Shown: piece by piece, positions 27,709-33,232 of the stretch
How the letters are laid out: each line of letters starts with the position of its first letter
Position numbering within the stretch: the stretch's first letter is position 1
NCBI GenBank assembly: GCA_017962085.1
Contig: JAGCWA010000017.1
Location: 62,001 to 126,000 of the forward strand
Direction of reading: 5' to 3'
DNA: 64,000 nt
Source of the DNA: Paludibacteraceae bacterium
Lineage (GTDB): Bacteria > Bacteroidota > Bacteroidia > Bacteroidales > Paludibacteraceae
Made by a program: the position numbers and the translations under genes
The notes under the pieces: generated by a model
Told to the model about the DNA's origin: nothing
The model's database searches: none
Seen by the model: only the letters and a program-made list of their open reading frames with translations

Positions 27709-29031
27709 ATGAAAAAGATTTTTAGATACATACTCCACTCGATAGGGATAATGCTGATCATTGTGGCGATATGCGCTATCGTGAACGAGTTGCGGTATAG
27801 CTCTTCCTATTTGGATCCCGTTGGTCAGATAATGGGTAACTTCACCATGACGGATAGCTATTTCCAGACGGAGAACGACAAGGCGGATCATGAGGCTGAC
27901 CTCAGTCCGGACATTATCTTGTTGGATTTGGCGCAGTGCTATTCGAGGGCTGACATCGCCGCTGGAATCGAGTACATGTGTGATGCGGGAGCCAAGGTGG
28001 TCGCGCTTGACGTTATCTTCGGCGGTGCCGGGAATGGCGATACGCTTGCCAATGATAGCCTTGAGCATGTCATCGCCCGTTGCAAGGATCACGTGATTGC
28101 GGCCTGCAGGATGGTGCCCCAATACGATCCGTTGCAGAAAGTGGCGGCCGGCGGAGACGAGTCTAAAATTAACATGTACAAGAAGGAGGAGTCCTACTTC
28201 GTGAAGAATACTGGTTGTGTTGAGGCTTGCGTGAATGTGGAAAACGAGACAATCCGTAAATTCTCTAAAACACTTACTTTCGGTGACACGACACTGAGCA
28301 CTTTTGTCCATGAGATCGTCCGGATGACTCGTCCGGATGTTTACGATTTCTGGGAGAGCCGGGAGGAGAACGAGGAGTTGATCCATTACAAGCAAACCAT
28401 GTTCGAGAAGGTCCTTCTACTTGAGGTCCTGGATATTGTGAGGGCCAAGAAAGCCATCGACGCGATGGAGGATCCGATGGAGAAGAAACTGTTTATGCAG
28501 GAGATTGAGGGGAACGACACCTATTTCCGTGAGCTCATAAAAGATAAAACCGTCTTGGTGGGAGATTATCTGGATTTGAGGGACTTCCATGACATTCCTA
28601 TTGTCATCGACGGAACAAGGCGTATTTGCGGAACGACCATCCATGGTTATGCCATCTCGACGTTGACCAAGCCTGGCAGACTGATTAACCAGATGTCTGA
28701 AAAGCAGGGAATGCTCTTGGGTCTGTTATATACTTTCTTGTATTGTTTCATCTATTGTTGGATCAACGAGAAGTACAATGACGTGTCGGGTGTGTTGTCC
28801 ACCACCCTCCAGATCATCATGATGCTGGCCCTCGTCTTTTTGGGAGGCTATTTGTTCATTGAACGCCAGTACAACATCACATTGCTCTATGCCTTGTTGG
28901 GAACAGGTTTGGCGGGATATGCGGCGGAAATCTTCTACTTCTTGCTATTCAAAGTAGAAAAGATGATAGTGAAGAAGCGGGGCGGTAAGACGCTTGAACA
29001 GGAAATTGTAGAAAACATAGAAAATCGATAA
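27709..29031 (+). CDS. CHASE2-domain membrane protein without an output domain
   Basis: The 440-residue protein has one N-terminal membrane helix (about 7-26), a large extracytoplasmic CHASE2-type sensor domain (about 30-330), then three membrane helices (about 334-352, 362-384, 390-414) and a charged tail of some 25 residues. CHASE2 traits are ILLDLAQ ... GAKVVALDVIF (70-104) and DKTVLVGDYLDLRDFHDIP with TTIHGYA (279-315). CHASE2 proteins usually end in an adenylate cyclase, kinase or diguanylate cyclase; none is present. An in-frame GTG at 27691 is less likely than the ATG at 27709. The caspase gene starts 4 nt after its stop, so the two are cotranscribed. Confidence 0.85.
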   Translation: MKKIFRYILHSIGIMLIIVAICAIVNELRYSSSYLDPVGQIMGNFTMTDSYFQTENDKADHEADLSPDIILLDLAQCYSRADIAAGIEYMCDAGAKVVALDVIFGGAGNGDTLANDSLEHVIARCKDHVIAACRMVPQYDPLQKVAAGGDESKINMYKKEESYFVKNTGCVEACVNVENETIRKFSKTLTFGDTTLSTFVHEIVRMTRPDVYDFWESREENEELIHYKQTMFEKVLLLEVLDIVRAKKAIDAMEDPMEKKLFMQEIEGNDTYFRELIKDKTVLVGDYLDLRDFHDIPIVIDGTRRICGTTIHGYAISTLTKPGRLINQMSEKQGMLLGLLYTFLYCFIYCWINEKYNDVSGVLSTTLQIIMMLALVFLGGYLFIERQYNITLLYALLGTGLAGYAAEIFYFLLFKVEKMIVKKRGGKTLEQEIVENIENR

Positions 29032-29035
29032 AAAA

Positions 29036-31057
29036 ATGAAGAAGTACTTATTGACATTGTGTTTGCTTGCGGTGGCTGTCGTGTATGCGCCGGCGCAGAA
29101 AGCGAACAGAAGCCCTAAAACGGGTAAATGGGGATTCATGAATGGCTCCACATGGGTCATTCAGCCTATTTATGAGAATTACGATCAGTTTAACGCATTC
29201 GCAGGAAAAAGATATGCTATCGTACAGTACCAAGGAAAGTGGGGTGCCATAGCGGCGGATGGGAAGTATTATTGCAAGCCAGTCTTCGCGACCAAGGAGA
29301 TGGCTCTCCGTGCCGCGAAATTAGCCGTGAAAGGTGGAGATAGAAGTGTTTTCCTTTATGCGGTCTACGATAACGCTAAGAACAGATGGGGATTTGTGGA
29401 TTACACCGGTGAAATGTATTTCCGTCCTATTTATGAGGAGGTTGATAATGAATACACGTTCGACAAGGGAAAGAGTTATGCCATTGTGAAGCTCGACAAA
29501 CAGTGGGGTGCTGTGGACCGTGAAGGTGTGATGGCCATCAACCCATATTTCACTTCGAAGGAGGATGTCCGTAAGGCAGTCAAGGAGTGGGAGATGAAGG
29601 CTGTATTGGGTGACAACATCTATATCGGTTTGAAGAACGGTGTGAAAAAGATCGGTTTCATCAACTATTTGGGTAACTGGATCATGAAGCCAGTGTTCGA
29701 GAACGTCGACAAGTCCGCACTCTTTAGTGCGACGTGCAATTTCGCTGTCGTGAAGTATAAAGGGAAATGGGGTGCCATTGACCGTGCCGGTAACTTCGTC
29801 GTTAAGCCTACATTCGCTGACATGAATGCGGCTAAGGCGGCAGCCAATAAGTGGCAAGCGAACAATCCGAAGGGAAGAGTCTCCTCTTCGCTGGTGCCTA
29901 ACTTGGAGTCGTTCGCATATAAGACCCCTAACCTTGCGGCGCAGGAGCCTCAGAAGAGACCTGACCCTACTCCTACTAAGCCAAGTGGAGGAAACACAAC
30001 GCCTGGCAAGGTGGAGCCTACGCCAACTGTCACTCACGTGGTGGAAGGCGCGCCGACCATCAAGATCTTGTCACCTAAGGATGGTTCCCAATACTCCTCT
30101 CCTGAGGTTACCTTCACCTACGAAACCTCTACCCATGATGGTAGTGAGCCAGAGATCATCGCTTACATCAACGGTGAGCTGATGCCTCGTACGAAGGGAG
30201 TGAAACGTGTCGGAAAGCAAATCACCCTCACGTTGCCGCGTGTGAGCGATTGCCGCGTGCAGTTGATCGCAAAGGATAACAGAGGACAGAATAGTGACCC
30301 TGCGGTTGTGTTGCTGCACTATCGTGGCGACCGTCCGAAACCAGCATTGCACGTCTTTGCTGTCGGTGTGAGCGATTATGACCAAGCAGACCTGAGATTG
30401 CAGCATGCGGCGAAGGATGCGGCAGACTTCATGAATACAGTAAAGACTTGCAATTTGTCTCAATATCAATCGCTGAAGACCGCCAACCTGATTCAGGATA
30501 AGACCGCTTCCGACAAGAACATCAAGAAGGGACTTTCCACTTTGGTTAACTCGGCAAGTCAGGGCGACGTGATTCTCCTCTTCTTCTCCGGACATGGTGC
30601 GAAAGAGGGTGCTGAGACTTACTTCTTGTCTTGCAATGCGGAGAGCAACGACCTCTTCTCTTCTGCGGTCGACTTCGATATCATCCGTAGCGCGTTGAAG
30701 AGAATGAAGGATAAGAAGTGCAAGATCATCATCTTCATGGATGCGTGCCACTCGGGTTCCATGTATGGCATCAGAGGCGCTGCGGAGACCTTCTCCATGG
30801 CAGAGCCTGACATCATCGGATTCTACTCCAGCACTGAGGCGCAGAAGTCCAACGAGTCCGAGCAGTGGGAGAACGGTATCTTCACGAAGGCTTTGCTTGA
30901 GGGTATAAAGGGTAAGGCAGTCGATGAGGAAGGAAACATCACGCTGGATGCTTTGGAGCTCTACATCCGTAACCAGGTAAGGCAAGCGACCAACGGAAGG
31001 CAAATGCCTATCTTCGAGAACAGACAAGGTAACTTCATCCTCTTCGAGAAGAAATAG
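29036..31057 (+). CDS. Exported WG-repeat protein with C-terminal caspase-like (C14) protease domain
   Basis: The 673-residue protein has a signal peptide (about 1-20, cut near APAQ). Six WG/KWG-type repeats follow (about 30-270: GKWGFMN, GKWGAIA, NRWGFVD, KQWGAVD, KIGFIN, GKWGAID), then a proline/threonine-rich linker (about 300-335), an Ig-like beta domain (about 338-430) and a caspase fold (about 437-673). The catalytic dyad is visible: His520 in FFSGHG and Cys571 in MDACHSG, so the protease appears active. Metacaspase-type C14 enzymes usually cut after Arg or Lys, but specificity here is unknown. It lies between the CHASE2 and FecR/DUF4384 genes. The signal peptide places it outside the cytoplasm, unlike most bacterial caspases tied to abortive infection. 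Confidence 0.9.
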   Translation: MKKYLLTLCLLAVAVVYAPAQKANRSPKTGKWGFMNGSTWVIQPIYENYDQFNAFAGKRYAIVQYQGKWGAIAADGKYYCKPVFATKEMALRAAKLAVKGGDRSVFLYAVYDNAKNRWGFVDYTGEMYFRPIYEEVDNEYTFDKGKSYAIVKLDKQWGAVDREGVMAINPYFTSKEDVRKAVKEWEMKAVLGDNIYIGLKNGVKKIGFINYLGNWIMKPVFENVDKSALFSATCNFAVVKYKGKWGAIDRAGNFVVKPTFADMNAAKAAANKWQANNPKGRVSSSLVPNLESFAYKTPNLAAQEPQKRPDPTPTKPSGGNTTPGKVEPTPTVTHVVEGAPTIKILSPKDGSQYSSPEVTFTYETSTHDGSEPEIIAYINGELMPRTKGVKRVGKQITLTLPRVSDCRVQLIAKDNRGQNSDPAVVLLHYRGDRPKPALHVFAVGVSDYDQADLRLQHAAKDAADFMNTVKTCNLSQYQSLKTANLIQDKTASDKNIKKGLSTLVNSASQGDVILLFFSGHGAKEGAETYFLSCNAESNDLFSSAVDFDIIRSALKRMKDKKCKIIIFMDACHSGSMYGIRGAAETFSMAEPDIIGFYSSTEAQKSNESEQWENGIFTKALLEGIKGKAVDEEGNITLDALELYIRNQVRQATNGRQMPIFENRQGNFILFEKK

Positions 31058-31058
31058 T

Positions 31059-31075
31059 TTGGCATGTGTTTTGCA
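31059..31075 (+). promoter_or_regulatory. Sigma-54-like promoter upstream of the FecR/DUF4384 gene
   Basis: TTGGCATGTGTTTTGCA has GG (31061-31062) and GC (31073-31074) exactly 12 nt apart, as in the sigma-54 consensus TGGCAC-N5-TTGCA. It begins 2 nt after the caspase stop codon. A start about 12 nt downstream would leave a 5' leader near 27 nt. The gene then has an AAAGGAG ribosome-binding site, which is unusually strong for this phylum. A related copy is at 32011. Confidence 0.55.
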
Positions 31076-31112
31076 CTAACTTTAGTAAACATTAATAAGA
31101 AAGGAGATCAAT

Positions 31113-31991
31113 ATGAAGAAAAGTTTTTTGATAGCGCTTTTGTCGATGCTGGTTAGCTTCGTCTGCGCACAAGATATCTACGTCTACTCCGTCATCGGGA
31201 AAGCGGAGAAGCAAGCGAACGGAAAGTGGGTGGCTCTGCAGAAAAGGGATCCGCTCCAATTGACGGATATGATCCGTGTGGATAACAACTCGGCTTTGTC
31301 TTTTATTGACCGTAAGGCGGAGAAGATCTATTCCATCTCCCAGAACAATGGACAAAAGGTGAGCGAGCTGATCGCCAACTACAAAAGCAAGCAGAGCTAT
31401 GCCTCTAACTTCGTGTCCCACGCATCCAAGTCCCTCTTCAACGGAGGATCTGACAGGATCAGCCATGAGGCCGCAGGTTGTACCTACCGTGGAGATATCA
31501 TAGAGAATGATATCGCTAAGGCTATCTTGGCAAAGCATAACGGCAGTCCATTGGGCTCCATGAACAATGCCAAGACCGATTATGCCATTTCGTTCTCCAT
31601 CCTCGACAGAAGGACTAAGGCAGAATTGGAGGGTGTAGTGGCGTTGGATAGCCAAGCTGTCTTCAGAATCAAGAACAGCAGCGACACGCCGTTGTATGTG
31701 AATATCCTCGACATCAACAAGAATGGTGAGAAGTATGATTGCTTGCCGATCGATGATGCCACGACGATGTCCCATTTGCTCATTCCGGGCAATTGTACCA
31801 TTGATTTGACGACCTATCCAGTGGAATTCTCTGAGCCAGTGGGAATTGACAACCTGATTCTCATTGCGACTGAGGTGCCATACGACCTTCGTCAGGTGAT
31901 GAAATACTTTGATAAGGCGGATGCTTCCAAGGTACAGTCGTCCAATTATCCTGTAGGTGTTTATTGTAAAAAAATTGAAGTAAAACAATAA
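31113..31991 (+). CDS. Exported FecR-like/DUF4384 protein
   Basis: The 292-residue protein has a signal peptide (about 1-19, cut near VCAQ). Residues about 22-75 (VIGKAEKQANGKWVALQKRD ... ALSFIDR) resemble the small beta domain of FecR-type proteins. The region about 180-260 (FRIKNSSDTPLYVNILDI ... LILIATEVP) resembles DUF4384, a domain often found with caspases and CHAT proteases. It has no catalytic motif that I can see. It follows the caspase gene by 55 nt and has its own putative sigma-54 promoter, so it may be made under other conditions or in excess. A role as partner, substrate or inhibitor of the caspase is inference. Confidence 0.75.
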   Translation: MKKSFLIALLSMLVSFVCAQDIYVYSVIGKAEKQANGKWVALQKRDPLQLTDMIRVDNNSALSFIDRKAEKIYSISQNNGQKVSELIANYKSKQSYASNFVSHASKSLFNGGSDRISHEAAGCTYRGDIIENDIAKAILAKHNGSPLGSMNNAKTDYAISFSILDRRTKAELEGVVALDSQAVFRIKNSSDTPLYVNILDINKNGEKYDCLPIDDATTMSHLLIPGNCTIDLTTYPVEFSEPVGIDNLILIATEVPYDLRQVMKYFDKADASKVQSSNYPVGVYCKKIEVKQ

Positions 31992-32010
31992 ATTTAACGA
32001 TTCGGAAAGT

Positions 32011-32027
32011 TTGGCACGCTTTTTGTA
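32011..32027 (+). promoter_or_regulatory. Second sigma-54-like motif, downstream of the FecR/DUF4384 gene
   Basis: TTGGCACGCTTTTTGTA keeps GG (32013-32014) and G (32025) at the 12-nt spacing; the -12 dinucleotide is GT rather than GC. The surrounding 31 nt (32008-32038) match 31056-31086 at 23 positions, including bases beyond the core. No ORF follows; a terminator lies about 65-100 nt downstream of the expected start. Confidence 0.45.
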
Positions 32028-32036
32028 CTATACTTA

Positions 32037-32135
32037 ATGGCGTTGTGAAATGCTTTCCTTATAAATTTGTAGTTTAGTTCTAATTTGCGTTTTTTAAAAA
32101 GAAAAGCCATTCCATTCGGGTGGCTTTCTTTTTTT
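32037..32135 (+). ncRNA. Putative small RNA of about 100 nt
   Basis: A transcript from the second sigma-54-like motif would start near 32037 and end at the terminator at 32103-32135. No ORF of useful length is present in it. The alternative is that the terminator simply ends the mRNA of the FecR/DUF4384 gene. No known RNA family was recognised. Confidence 0.3.
32103..32135 (+). terminator. Rho-independent terminator
   Basis: AAAGCCATTC (32103-32112) pairs with GGGTGGCTTT (32118-32127), with two G-U pairs, around a 5-nt loop. A T run (32129-32135) follows. It ends the locus begun at 27709 or the short transcript from 32037. Confidence 0.8.
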
Positions 32136-32250
32136 ATCAGGGAATATCAAAACCGATCTCTTTAGAGAATTAAAAGAAGAAGATATTTCTGTTCGGATAG
32201 TCCATATAGATTCTAACAGTAGATTCCACGTAGATCAAACAAGTTCTAAC

Positions 32251-32287
32251 AAAAAAAAGACTGACCCTTTCGGAAAATCAGTCTTTT
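32251..32287 (-). terminator. Terminator of tRNA-Phe
   Basis: On the minus strand the 10-bp stem AAAAGACTGA/TCAGTCTTTT (32287-32278 with 32264-32255) is followed by a T run (to 32251). It begins 4 nt after the tRNA 3' end. Confidence 0.8.
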
Positions 32288-32290
32288 CTG

Positions 32291-32363
32291 TGGTACCACC
32301 AGGAATCGAACCGGGGACACAAGGATTTTCAGTCCTTTGCTCTACCAACTGAGCTATGGCACC
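32291..32363 (-). tRNA. tRNA-Phe (anticodon GAA)
   Basis: The 73-nt gene folds as a cloverleaf. The acceptor stem is GGTGCCA with TGGTACC (one G-U pair) and discriminator A. The D-arm is GCTCAGTTGGTAGAGC. The anticodon stem-loop is AGGACTGAAAATCCT with GAA, and the T-loop is TTCGATT. CCA is not encoded. The T-stem (CCCGG/CCTGG) has an apparent C-U mismatch at its middle pair. Confidence 0.95.
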
Positions 32364-32383
32364 AACTTTTTGTTTTTGCTCTG

Positions 32384-32414
32384 CAAAGGTAGGGACTTTT
32401 CTTGAAGTGGCAAA
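32384..32414 (-). promoter_or_regulatory. tRNA-Phe promoter
   Basis: On the minus strand TTTG (32414-32411), a 19-nt spacer and TACCTTTG (32391-32384) match the phylum consensus exactly. The start would be about 13 nt before the mature tRNA. Confidence 0.8.
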
Positions 32415-32464
32415 TTTTTTCGGGTTATTTTTTAATATTATTTTTTACATAACTGATAATCAAT

Positions 32465-32472
32465 TATATTTG
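32465..32472 (+). promoter_or_regulatory. -7 box of the YgjP-like gene
   Basis: TATATTTG matches TANNTTTG and lies 19 nt before the ATG at 32492. Its -33 partner is only a T run. Confidence 0.5.
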
Positions 32473-32491
32473 TATATATCTTGAGAATTTA

Positions 32492-33232
32492 ATGGAGGAT
32501 GACATGGGCTATAAGGAGGATGAAATAGAGGTGGAGGGGATTGGGAAAGTTACGGTTTCCTATAGCGTGAGGGCGAAATATATATCCATTAGGGTAAAAC
32601 CGAGGGAGATTGTATTGGTTGTTCCTAGGCGGAACACCCTAAAGGATGCACTTTTTTTCTTGGATAAGAAGAGGGAGTGGATAAAAAATGCTTTGAGGAA
32701 GAACGAGGAGCGATTGTCTAAAAGTCAGGTGGCAGTGTTAGATGAGGAAAGTGAGTACAAGACGCTGACGTTTACGGTGCGTATTGTGCGGGTGGAGGGC
32801 GTCCATTTCCAGTCGTCATTGAAGGAAGGGGTGCTTACCATCTCATGTCCGAAGAGCGTTGATATAAAGGCGGAGAATGTCCAGACGCTCATTCGGAAGG
32901 TGATAGAGCGGACCATGCTAGTTGAGGCTAAGCGCGTATTGCCGGAGAGGCTTTCGTATATCGCGCGGAGGTGTGGTTTGCGGTATGTAAGTTGTCGTAT
33001 CCGCAATGTGCGGTCCATATGGGGCAGTTGCACAAAAGAAAGCCACATCAGTTTGAATTTATACCTGATGCGGCTTCCACAACATTTGATAGATTACGTT
33101 CTAATTCACGAGTTATGCCATACTGTGGAGATGAATCACAGTGATCGTTTCTGGGCTCTTGTCGACTCGTACACGGGCGGTAATTCCAAATCGCTCAGGA
33201 AGGAGCTCCGTGGTTATTGCCCTGGTTTCTGA
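32492..33232 (+). CDS. YgjP-like (DUF45) zinc metallopeptidase
   Basis: The 246-residue protein belongs to the YgjP/DUF45 family of small gluzincin-like proteases of uncertain substrate. The zinc motif HELCHTVEMNHS near 205-216 gives two histidines and the catalytic glutamate, with a third ligand likely in MNHSDRFW. The segment RSIWGSCTK upstream is the usual family marker. It has no signal peptide or membrane segment, so it is cytoplasmic. An alternative ATG lies five codons in. Confidence 0.85.
   Translation: MEDDMGYKEDEIEVEGIGKVTVSYSVRAKYISIRVKPREIVLVVPRRNTLKDALFFLDKKREWIKNALRKNEERLSKSQVAVLDEESEYKTLTFTVRIVRVEGVHFQSSLKEGVLTISCPKSVDIKAENVQTLIRKVIERTMLVEAKRVLPERLSYIARRCGLRYVSCRIRNVRSIWGSCTKESHISLNLYLMRLPQHLIDYVLIHELCHTVEMNHSDRFWALVDSYTGGNSKSLRKELRGYCPGF

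What the first reader, a model, noticed from the sequence alone, without database searches (positions are those of the whole stretch)
27709..31991. CHASE2 / WG-caspase / FecR-DUF4384 module acting outside the cytoplasm
Seen: three consecutive genes for a CHASE2 membrane protein, an exported WG-repeat protein with an intact caspase dyad (His520, Cys571), and an exported FecR-like/DUF4384 protein. The first two are 4 nt apart. Known: CHASE2, caspase/CHAT and DUF4384 domains are often found near each other, but most caspase systems studied act in the cytoplasm. Inference: here all three parts face the periplasm or beyond. This suggests an envelope-stress or signal-driven proteolysis switch, with CHASE2 as sensor, the WG repeats as a binding platform and the DUF4384 protein as partner or substrate.
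Basis: partly seen in the sequence, partly recalled or inferred. Interest (0 to 1): 0.75.

Follow-up and report, generated by a model that had tools for sequence, protein, structure and literature searches.

The report
Exported caspase module, sigma-54-type small RNA
A gut bacterium carries three co-inherited genes that seem to build a protein-cutting switch outside the cell's inner compartment, and right beside them lies a small RNA gene of a family that the RNA library searched here does not contain.

Summary
In detail: CHASE2 (27709-29031), exported WG-caspase with H520/C571 (29036-31057), exported DUF4384 protein (31113-31991). The 'FecR-like' label is not supported (0 of 16 homologues). 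The module is real: the same order in all 12 same-genus genomes that have the caspase, with differing flanks. Of 36 strong relatives 25 have all three genes within the fetched stretch, in four orders. The dyad is invariant in 26 of 26; CHASE2 has no recognised output domain (21 scanned). I read it as an extracytoplasmic proteolytic switch; cue and substrate are unknown. It is a new variant: the published CHASE2-caspase link I saw is a fusion predicted to keep its caspase in the cytoplasm.

Outside the given coordinates, sigma-54-type sites precede the DUF4384 gene (31059) and a small RNA gene (32011), each in 12 of 12 genus loci. The RNA has a covarying GNRA hairpin, no Rfam match, and relatives in all 31 sampled family genomes with a close caspase, unlinked in 19. 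Shared ancestry could explain that.

The parts
27709..29031 (+). CHASE2 membrane protein, 440 aa: N-terminal membrane segment, CHASE2 domain (aa 78-340), C-terminal membrane segments, no recognised output domain
   Evidence: Pfam 2.3e-9; 21 of 21 homologues match CHASE2, none a signalling output domain; hydropathy
29036..31057 (+). Exported WG-repeat caspase, 673 aa; Peptidase_C14 at aa 442-662, His520 and Cys571
30359..31021 (+). Caspase (C14) domain of the protein
   Evidence: aa 442-662
31059..31075 (+). Sigma-54-type promoter-like site (GG-N10-GC), 37 nt before the DUF4384 start codon
   Evidence: one of 3 exact genome matches to TTGGCAYN5TTGCA; GG-N10-G[CT] in 12 of 12 genus loci
31113..31991 (+). 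Exported protein with a diverged DUF4384 domain (aa 183-256), 292 aa
32011..32027 (+). Second sigma-54-type promoter-like site (GG-N10-GT)
32032..32136 (+). Candidate small RNA: 5' GNRA-loop hairpin (32039-32054), core (32073-32093), terminator hairpin with T-run; the 5' end is a guess from the promoter
   Evidence: no Rfam match

Best explanation
The three genes most likely form a signal-gated cysteine protease that works outside the cytoplasm. SHOWN (by sequence): three genes kept together, an intact and strictly conserved caspase dyad, export-type N-termini on the caspase and DUF4384 proteins of the window, a CHASE2 membrane protein without any recognised cytoplasmic output domain. INFERRED: since CHASE2 has no output domain, its evident output is physical contact with the caspase on the same side of the membrane; a ligand or envelope cue bound by CHASE2 changes the recruitment or activity of the caspase; the WG repeats bind a partner or substrate; the DUF4384 protein is the caspase's regulatory domain on a separate chain (a fused domain in published cyanobacterial orthocaspases) and acts as adaptor, inhibitor or chaperone. 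In the window's genus the DUF4384 gene has its own sigma-54-type site, so its dose could rise independently of the protease. An invariant acidic residue, Glu607, may set a preference for cutting after Arg or Lys (analogy recalled from metacaspases; equivalence not tested).
For: Gene order CHASE2-CASP-DUF4384 in 12 of 12 same-genus genomes that have the caspase, and in L046 and L047; flanks differ. Of 36 strong relatives, CHASE2 within the stretch in 34, DUF4384 in 26, all three in 25; the order varies (CH-CASP-D, CH-D-CASP, CASP-CH-D, CASP-D-[TPR-CHAT]-CH) but the set persists. In genera g4 and g5, 9 of 10 genomes with a close caspase have a DUF4384 homologue on another contig. Three same-genus genomes without the caspase (G003, G005, G011) also lack DUF4384. 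H520, C571, D461 and E607 invariant in 26 of 26. Export; no NCBIfam model but a sub-threshold caspase one was hit, so no type IX sorting domain was seen (that NCBIfam holds such models is recalled). Fusions in print: CHASE2-metacaspase (PMC3501461, passages; PMC2853523, passages), DUF4384-orthocaspase (PMC7475262, passages).
Against: No structure or complex could be predicted. At the set hydropathy threshold an N-terminal segment was found in only 19 of 26 caspases and 13 of 16 DUF4384 proteins (L190 and L193 may have a wrong start). L167 has no CHASE2 in its 14-kb stretch, and G018 no DUF4384 match in its genome. DUF4384 is separable from the other two in g4 and g5. The sigma-54-type site before DUF4384 seems confined to the window's genus: not found in g5 (0 of 6), G020 of g6 or G034 of g20, doubtful in three g4 genomes. 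The published CHASE2-metacaspase fusion is predicted to keep the caspase in the cytoplasm, opposite to here.
Confidence: 0.5

Rival explanations
1. Anti-phage defence or programmed cell death: the caspase kills or arrests the cell, or a neighbour, after a signal.
For: The caspase domain matches the PADLOC model 'caspase' (9.8e-16); an extracellular role in death or fratricide was proposed for metacaspases with extracellular domains (PMC3501461, passage).
Against: The window's CHASE2 and DUF4384 proteins hit no PADLOC model, nor do 21 of 21 CHASE2 homologues; the caspase tree shows no sign of transfer into the genus (no species tree was built); an exported protease has no evident route to cytoplasmic targets. 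The flanking genes were read by eye only and not scanned for defence genes.
Confidence: 0.1
2. Housekeeping envelope processing: the caspase constitutively matures or turns over periplasmic or outer-membrane proteins, with WG repeats and DUF4384 as substrate holders and CHASE2 as plain membrane anchor, without signalling.
For: One match per genome; parts extracytoplasmic by hydropathy; no output domain on CHASE2.
Against: No caspase match in 4 of 16 same-genus genomes (one of them, G008, is cut at a contig edge inside DUF4384), and a match at E up to 1e-40 in only 37 of 300 family genomes, so it is dispensable; the site before DUF4384 argues for inducibility in the genus.
Confidence: 0.2
3. 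The three genes are neighbours by chance or only co-transcribed.
For: Gene 3 has its own promoter-like site and is on another contig in genera g4 and g5.
Against: The set persists through changes of order and of flanks, and DUF4384 is mostly kept when unlinked.
Confidence: 0.05

Closest known systems
Metacaspase-CHASE2 fusion of Trichodesmium erythraeum (PMC3501461 and PMC2853523, passages seen)
   Same: CHASE2 with flanking membrane helices coupled to a caspase-type domain
   Different: There one chain with the caspase predicted in the cytoplasm; here two chains with the caspase exported, plus WG repeats and a DUF4384 partner
Cyanobacterial orthocaspases with DUF4384 or WD40 (PMC7475262, passages seen)
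   Same: Caspase linked to DUF4384 and, in other members, to propeller-type repeats
   Different: There fused; here DUF4384 is a separate exported protein and the repeats are WG
Metacaspases with an N-terminal helix that may be a signal peptide (46 sequences in PMC3501461, passages seen)
   Same: Exported prokaryotic caspase relatives are therefore not new as such
   Different: No linked CHASE2 and DUF4384 genes are described in the passages seen
EACC1-associated caspase systems (NCBIfam NF047832; related TRADD-N systems in PMC8195603, one passage seen)
   Same: Caspase domain of the same broad family
   Different: 77.3 bits against a cut-off of 140
Burkholderia LysM-FecR plus CHASE2 histidine-kinase operon (PMC5192318, passages seen)
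   Same: CHASE2 membrane sensor encoded beside an exported partner protein
   Different: There CHASE2 has a kinase output; here none, and no FecR match
FopS and GibS small RNAs of Bacteroides (PMC11697453, PMC7366714, passages seen)
   Same: Bacteroidota small RNA with a terminator hairpin; FopS is multicopy
   Different: FopS has canonical sigma-ABfr promoters and an unpaired 5' stretch and is said to be in Rfam; the RNA here has sigma-54-type sites, a 5' GNRA hairpin and no Rfam match

Membership tests
CHASE2 (PF05226) | Profile match over the curated cut-off | tested here: met
   37.6 bits against 26.3; 21 of 21 homologues match at E up to 0.01
CHASE2 receptor | Extracytoplasmic domain between an N-terminal and C-terminal membrane helices | tested here: met
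   Hydropathy: 21 of 21 have an N-terminal and at least two C-terminal segments; orientation not computed
CHASE2 receptor | Cytoplasmic output domain (kinase, cyclase) | tested here: not met
   None in 21; besides CHASE2 only one single match each to TctB and YibE_F
Peptidase C14 (caspase) | Profile match and His/Cys dyad | tested here: met
   26 of 26 match C14
Peptidase C14 (caspase) | Peptidase activity | not testable with these tools
   needs an assay
WG repeat (PF14903) | Repeats over the curated cut-off | tested here: met
   54.5 bits against 25.6; 21 of 26 homologues match at E up to 0.01
DUF4384 (PF14326) | Profile match over the curated cut-off | tested here: inconclusive
   Window protein 14.6 bits against 27; 15 of 16 homologues match at E up to 10, best 3e-6
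FecR (PF04773, accession recalled) | Profile match | tested here: not met
   0 of 16 at E up to 10
Caspase, EACC1-associated (NF047832) | Score over the curated cut-off | tested here: not met
   77.3 against 140 bits
Anti-phage defence system (PADLOC) | More than a lone caspase-domain match among the three proteins | tested here: not met
   Besides the caspase domain only a JAB match at E 0.047; 0 of 21 CHASE2 homologues; flanks not scanned
Sigma-54 promoter | GG-N10-GC at -24/-12 (consensus TGGCACN5-7TTGCT in PMC12316311, passage) | tested here: inconclusive
   GG-N10-G[CT] 12 of 12 at both sites, but -12 is GC in only 3 of 12 (DUF4384) and 1 of 12 (RNA); some RNA copies in other genera have the full TTGCA; one RpoN in the genome
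Any Rfam RNA family | Match in Rfam 15 | tested here: not met
   Window 31000-32600 at E up to 1: only the tRNA and a chance match opposite it at 22 bits against 65.7; 0 at gathering level in five loci of relatives

The most novel reading that the evidence does not exclude
The exported CHASE2/WG-caspase/DUF4384 protease switch and the neighbouring multicopy small RNA family belong to one RpoN-controlled envelope programme of Paludibacteraceae: an RpoN activator raises DUF4384 and the small RNA together, so that envelope proteolysis and post-transcriptional control are coupled.
Probability: 0.2. Interest if true: 0.75.

Novelty: new variant of a known kind. Interest (0 to 1): 0.52.

Why it matters
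Bacterial caspase relatives are mostly discussed (general knowledge) as cytoplasmic death or immunity proteases, although exported ones have been listed (PMC3501461, passages). A conserved, compact system in which sensor, protease and accessory domain all sit outside the cytoplasm would make extracytoplasmic caspase signalling testable with three genes. The small RNA next door appears to be a family without an Rfam entry, with a sigma-54-type promoter and up to four copies found in one genome (G019), reminiscent in layout of the sigma-54-driven quorum regulatory RNA of a Vibrio symbiont (PMC10162802, seen only in a search listing; the multicopy comparison is recalled).

Tried and rejected
Small RNA pairing with the starts of the three module mRNAs: no signal, z-scores from -1.23 to +2.39 over 36 gene starts in 12 loci (mononucleotide shuffles; three of the starts, in L040, L041 and L042, were not ATG and are probably mis-set). 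Small RNA outside the family: R2 matched 5 of 393 genomes drawn from the order under stricter filters; one is the window's, the other four are marginal (E 4.9e-4 to 9.8e-4) with neither promoter nor core motif in their loci. R1 also hit G026, G239, G343 and G346; the three that I read (G026, G239, G346) have the promoter but not the core and are negative with R2, so I do not count them; G343 was not read. Sigma-54-type site before DUF4384 as a family-wide trait: rejected. Genome-wide excess of the site at up to one mismatch: little (44 hits against 35 for the reversed control); the case rests on exact matches and conservation. Single-sequence folding of the RNA is only modestly better than shuffles (z -2.03; 8 of 200 as good). 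FecR label: dropped. Solved-structure searches: only metacaspase-type and one GSU0716 match to the caspase core, none for DUF4384, nothing significant for CHASE2. Papers: searches showed in their listings no description of this exported three-gene module or of this RNA; the library lacks most subscription papers, and held 18,957 papers of which 10 were listed.

Full report
WHAT IS THERE. The three genes are at the stated places. CHASE2: 27709-29031; WG-caspase: 29036-31057; DUF4384 protein: 31113-31991; gaps 4 and 55 nt. Pfam supports CHASE2 (2.3e-9), caspase C14 (1.3e-18) and WG repeats (1.1e-14) above cut-off; DUF4384 in the window protein is below cut-off, but 15 of 16 homologues match it. 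FecR is matched by none of the 16. The dyad is His520/Cys571. The window's genome has one CHASE2 match and one match to this caspase.

HOST. Relatives named by the genome collection are uncultured Paludibacteraceae and Bacteroidales, many from rumen, yak and water-buffalo gut and horse faeces, with deeper kin in Paludibacter sp. 221 and Candidatus Tidjanibacter. The window's own record is unnamed; I call its family Paludibacteraceae because contigs of the same lengths as those of its unnamed relatives bear that name.

THE MODULE IS A UNIT. In the genus sample, 12 of 16 genomes have the caspase and all 12 have CHASE2-CASP-DUF4384 in this order; the genes on either side change between sub-groups. 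Of the other eight fetched loci of unnamed relatives (L043-L050), L046 and L047 have the same order, L050 has CHASE2-DUF4384-CASP, L043, L044 and L048 have CHASE2-CASP only, L045 CASP-DUF4384 only, and L049 starts inside the caspase. In the named collection 57 stretches gave 56 loci. The 36 strongest (L153-L188, E 1e-71 or better) contain CHASE2 in 34, a DUF4384 homologue in 26, and all three in 25; nine have CHASE2 and caspase only, one caspase and DUF4384, one is cut at its contig start. The other 20 loci are weaker or generic caspases, with neither partner found by the two profiles, and are left out of that count. Several named loci are the same contigs as the unnamed ones, so the two sets are not independent. 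Orders among the 25: CH-CASP-D, CH-D-CASP, CASP-CH-D, and CASP-D-[TPR-CHAT with export-type N-terminus]-CH. In genera g4 and g5, 9 of 10 genomes with a close caspase have a DUF4384 homologue on another contig (none found in G018); I looked at the caspase's surroundings in four of these ten (L043, L044, L048, L049). G003, G005 and G011, which lack the caspase, lack DUF4384 too. In the caspase tree the window genus's six rows form one clade (100/99) inside an 18-row clade of gut Bacteroidales (100/99); nothing suggests transfer into the genus, but no species tree was built.

ANATOMY. CHASE2: 21 of 21 homologues have an N-terminal and at least two C-terminal hydrophobic segments, and none a recognised output domain. 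Caspase: 26 of 26 C14, 21 of 26 WG repeats; invariant columns include H520, C571, D461 and E607. Distant relatives in Desulfobacterales and Saprospiraceae, with export-type N-termini by eye, have WD40 repeats and a Big_7 Ig domain before the caspase (two proteins scanned; N-termini), so a repeat platform followed by Ig and caspase recurs. Export rests on N-terminal hydrophobic segments in 19 of 26 caspases and 13 of 16 DUF4384 proteins. No NCBIfam sorting model was hit, so the periplasm is the likeliest place (inference).

HOW IT MAY WORK. See the best explanation; linkage, dyad and export signals are shown by sequence, while the switching, the partner roles and the cue are inferred. Literature fusions tie the same domains together, but the published CHASE2-metacaspase fusion is predicted to have a cytoplasmic caspase.

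NEXT TO IT: SIGMA-54-TYPE SITES AND A SMALL RNA. TTGGCAYN5TTGCA occurs exactly three times in the 3.37-Mb assembly, once in the 55-nt gap before the DUF4384 gene. GG-N10-G[CT] is kept there in 12 of 12 genus loci, and again just after the DUF4384 gene in 12 of 12. In the window, the pattern TTGGCAN4TTTTGYA with up to one mismatch gave 2 matches, both exact, against 0.24 expected (4 of 100 shuffles reached two). The second site is followed by about 100 nt with a 21-nt core kept almost unchanged in the genus, ending in a terminator-type hairpin. A covariance model found it in 13 of 16 genus genomes, once each; in G008 the contig ends inside the DUF4384 gene. In other genera of the family it has the same promoter type, a 5' hairpin with a GNRA loop, and the core or a second sub-type of it. 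On a 10-sequence alignment all 5 hairpin pairs show changes on both sides; the covariation score is 0.916 against 0.351 in shuffles (0 of 500 as high) and at most 0.129 when slid; two weaker measures were reached by 14 and 9 of 500 shuffles; one row, L041, is misaligned at the hairpin and was kept. There is no Rfam match. The own genome has one RpoN match and eight activator-domain matches, three of them strong.

CO-OCCURRENCE. In a 300-genome family sample, 31 genomes have a close caspase (E up to 1e-140): 12 in the window's genus, 4 g4, 6 g5, 1 g6, 8 g20. All 31 have the RNA (24, the eight of g20, one seen in both); in G123 and G153 only the second sub-type was seen. In 19 it is on another contig or, in G128, about 265 kb away. 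Six genomes with more distant caspases have none; neither have G003, G005 and G011 nor 13 other family genomes without the caspase (31 genomes in all; the ninth match is G008). This is suggestive, but the carriers' caspases that are in the tree fall into one clade, so common descent explains it as well. The RNA shows no pairing signal with the module's own gene starts. I therefore keep module and RNA as two findings that share a locus and a promoter type in one genus.

VERDICT. Module: real, conserved, a new variant of known caspase-CHASE2-DUF4384 associations; mechanism plausible, not shown. RNA: a convincing structured RNA family by covariation and conservation, not found described in the searches named; transcription is not shown.

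Noticed in passing
window 32011-32136; L133-L144, L147-L150, L152, L216-L226, L229: Small RNA family with sigma-54-type promoter, GNRA 5' hairpin, conserved core (or a second sub-type) and terminator; several copies per genome in some genera, including tandem copies in G019 and G153.
   Followed up: yes
L187:8384-11170 and L188:8279-11089: TPR-CHAT protein with export-type N-terminus (CHAT E 1.2e-52 and 1.1e-56) between the DUF4384 and CHASE2 genes of the module in two rumen Bacteroidales: a second caspase-like protease in the same set.
   Followed up: partly
L051:1145-9515 (genome G029, same family): Small caspase gene with an export-type N-terminus in a cluster with two protein kinases (one with BspA-type leucine repeats), two FHA proteins and a PP2C phosphatase.
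   Followed up: partly
L189:4129-7080, L192:4237-7101: WD40-Big_7-caspase proteins with export-type N-termini in Desulfobacterales and Saprospiraceae, without CHASE2 or DUF4384 homologues in the fetched stretches.
   Followed up: partly
L093, L094, L095 (own genome C52:165769, C46:18659, C43:30695): Sigma-54-type near-matches 345-481 nt before genes for similar exported-looking proteins (N-terminus like MELKK...ANAQ), perhaps an exported-protein regulon.
   Followed up: no
L091 (own genome C49:113138): TTGGCACGGTTTTTGTA site with no same-strand ORF of 60 aa or more starting within 600 nt downstream in my ORF set: possibly another RNA gene.
   Followed up: no
window 32290-32363: tRNA-Phe (GAA) on the minus strand between the small RNA and the YgjP-like metallopeptidase gene.
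   Followed up: no
L036, L149: A gene that looks like rpoN by eye (starts MLQQKLQQK, 492 aa, not scanned) lies about 2.5 kb from the small RNA in two same-genus genomes; in the window's genome rpoN is about 100 kb away on the same contig.
   Followed up: no
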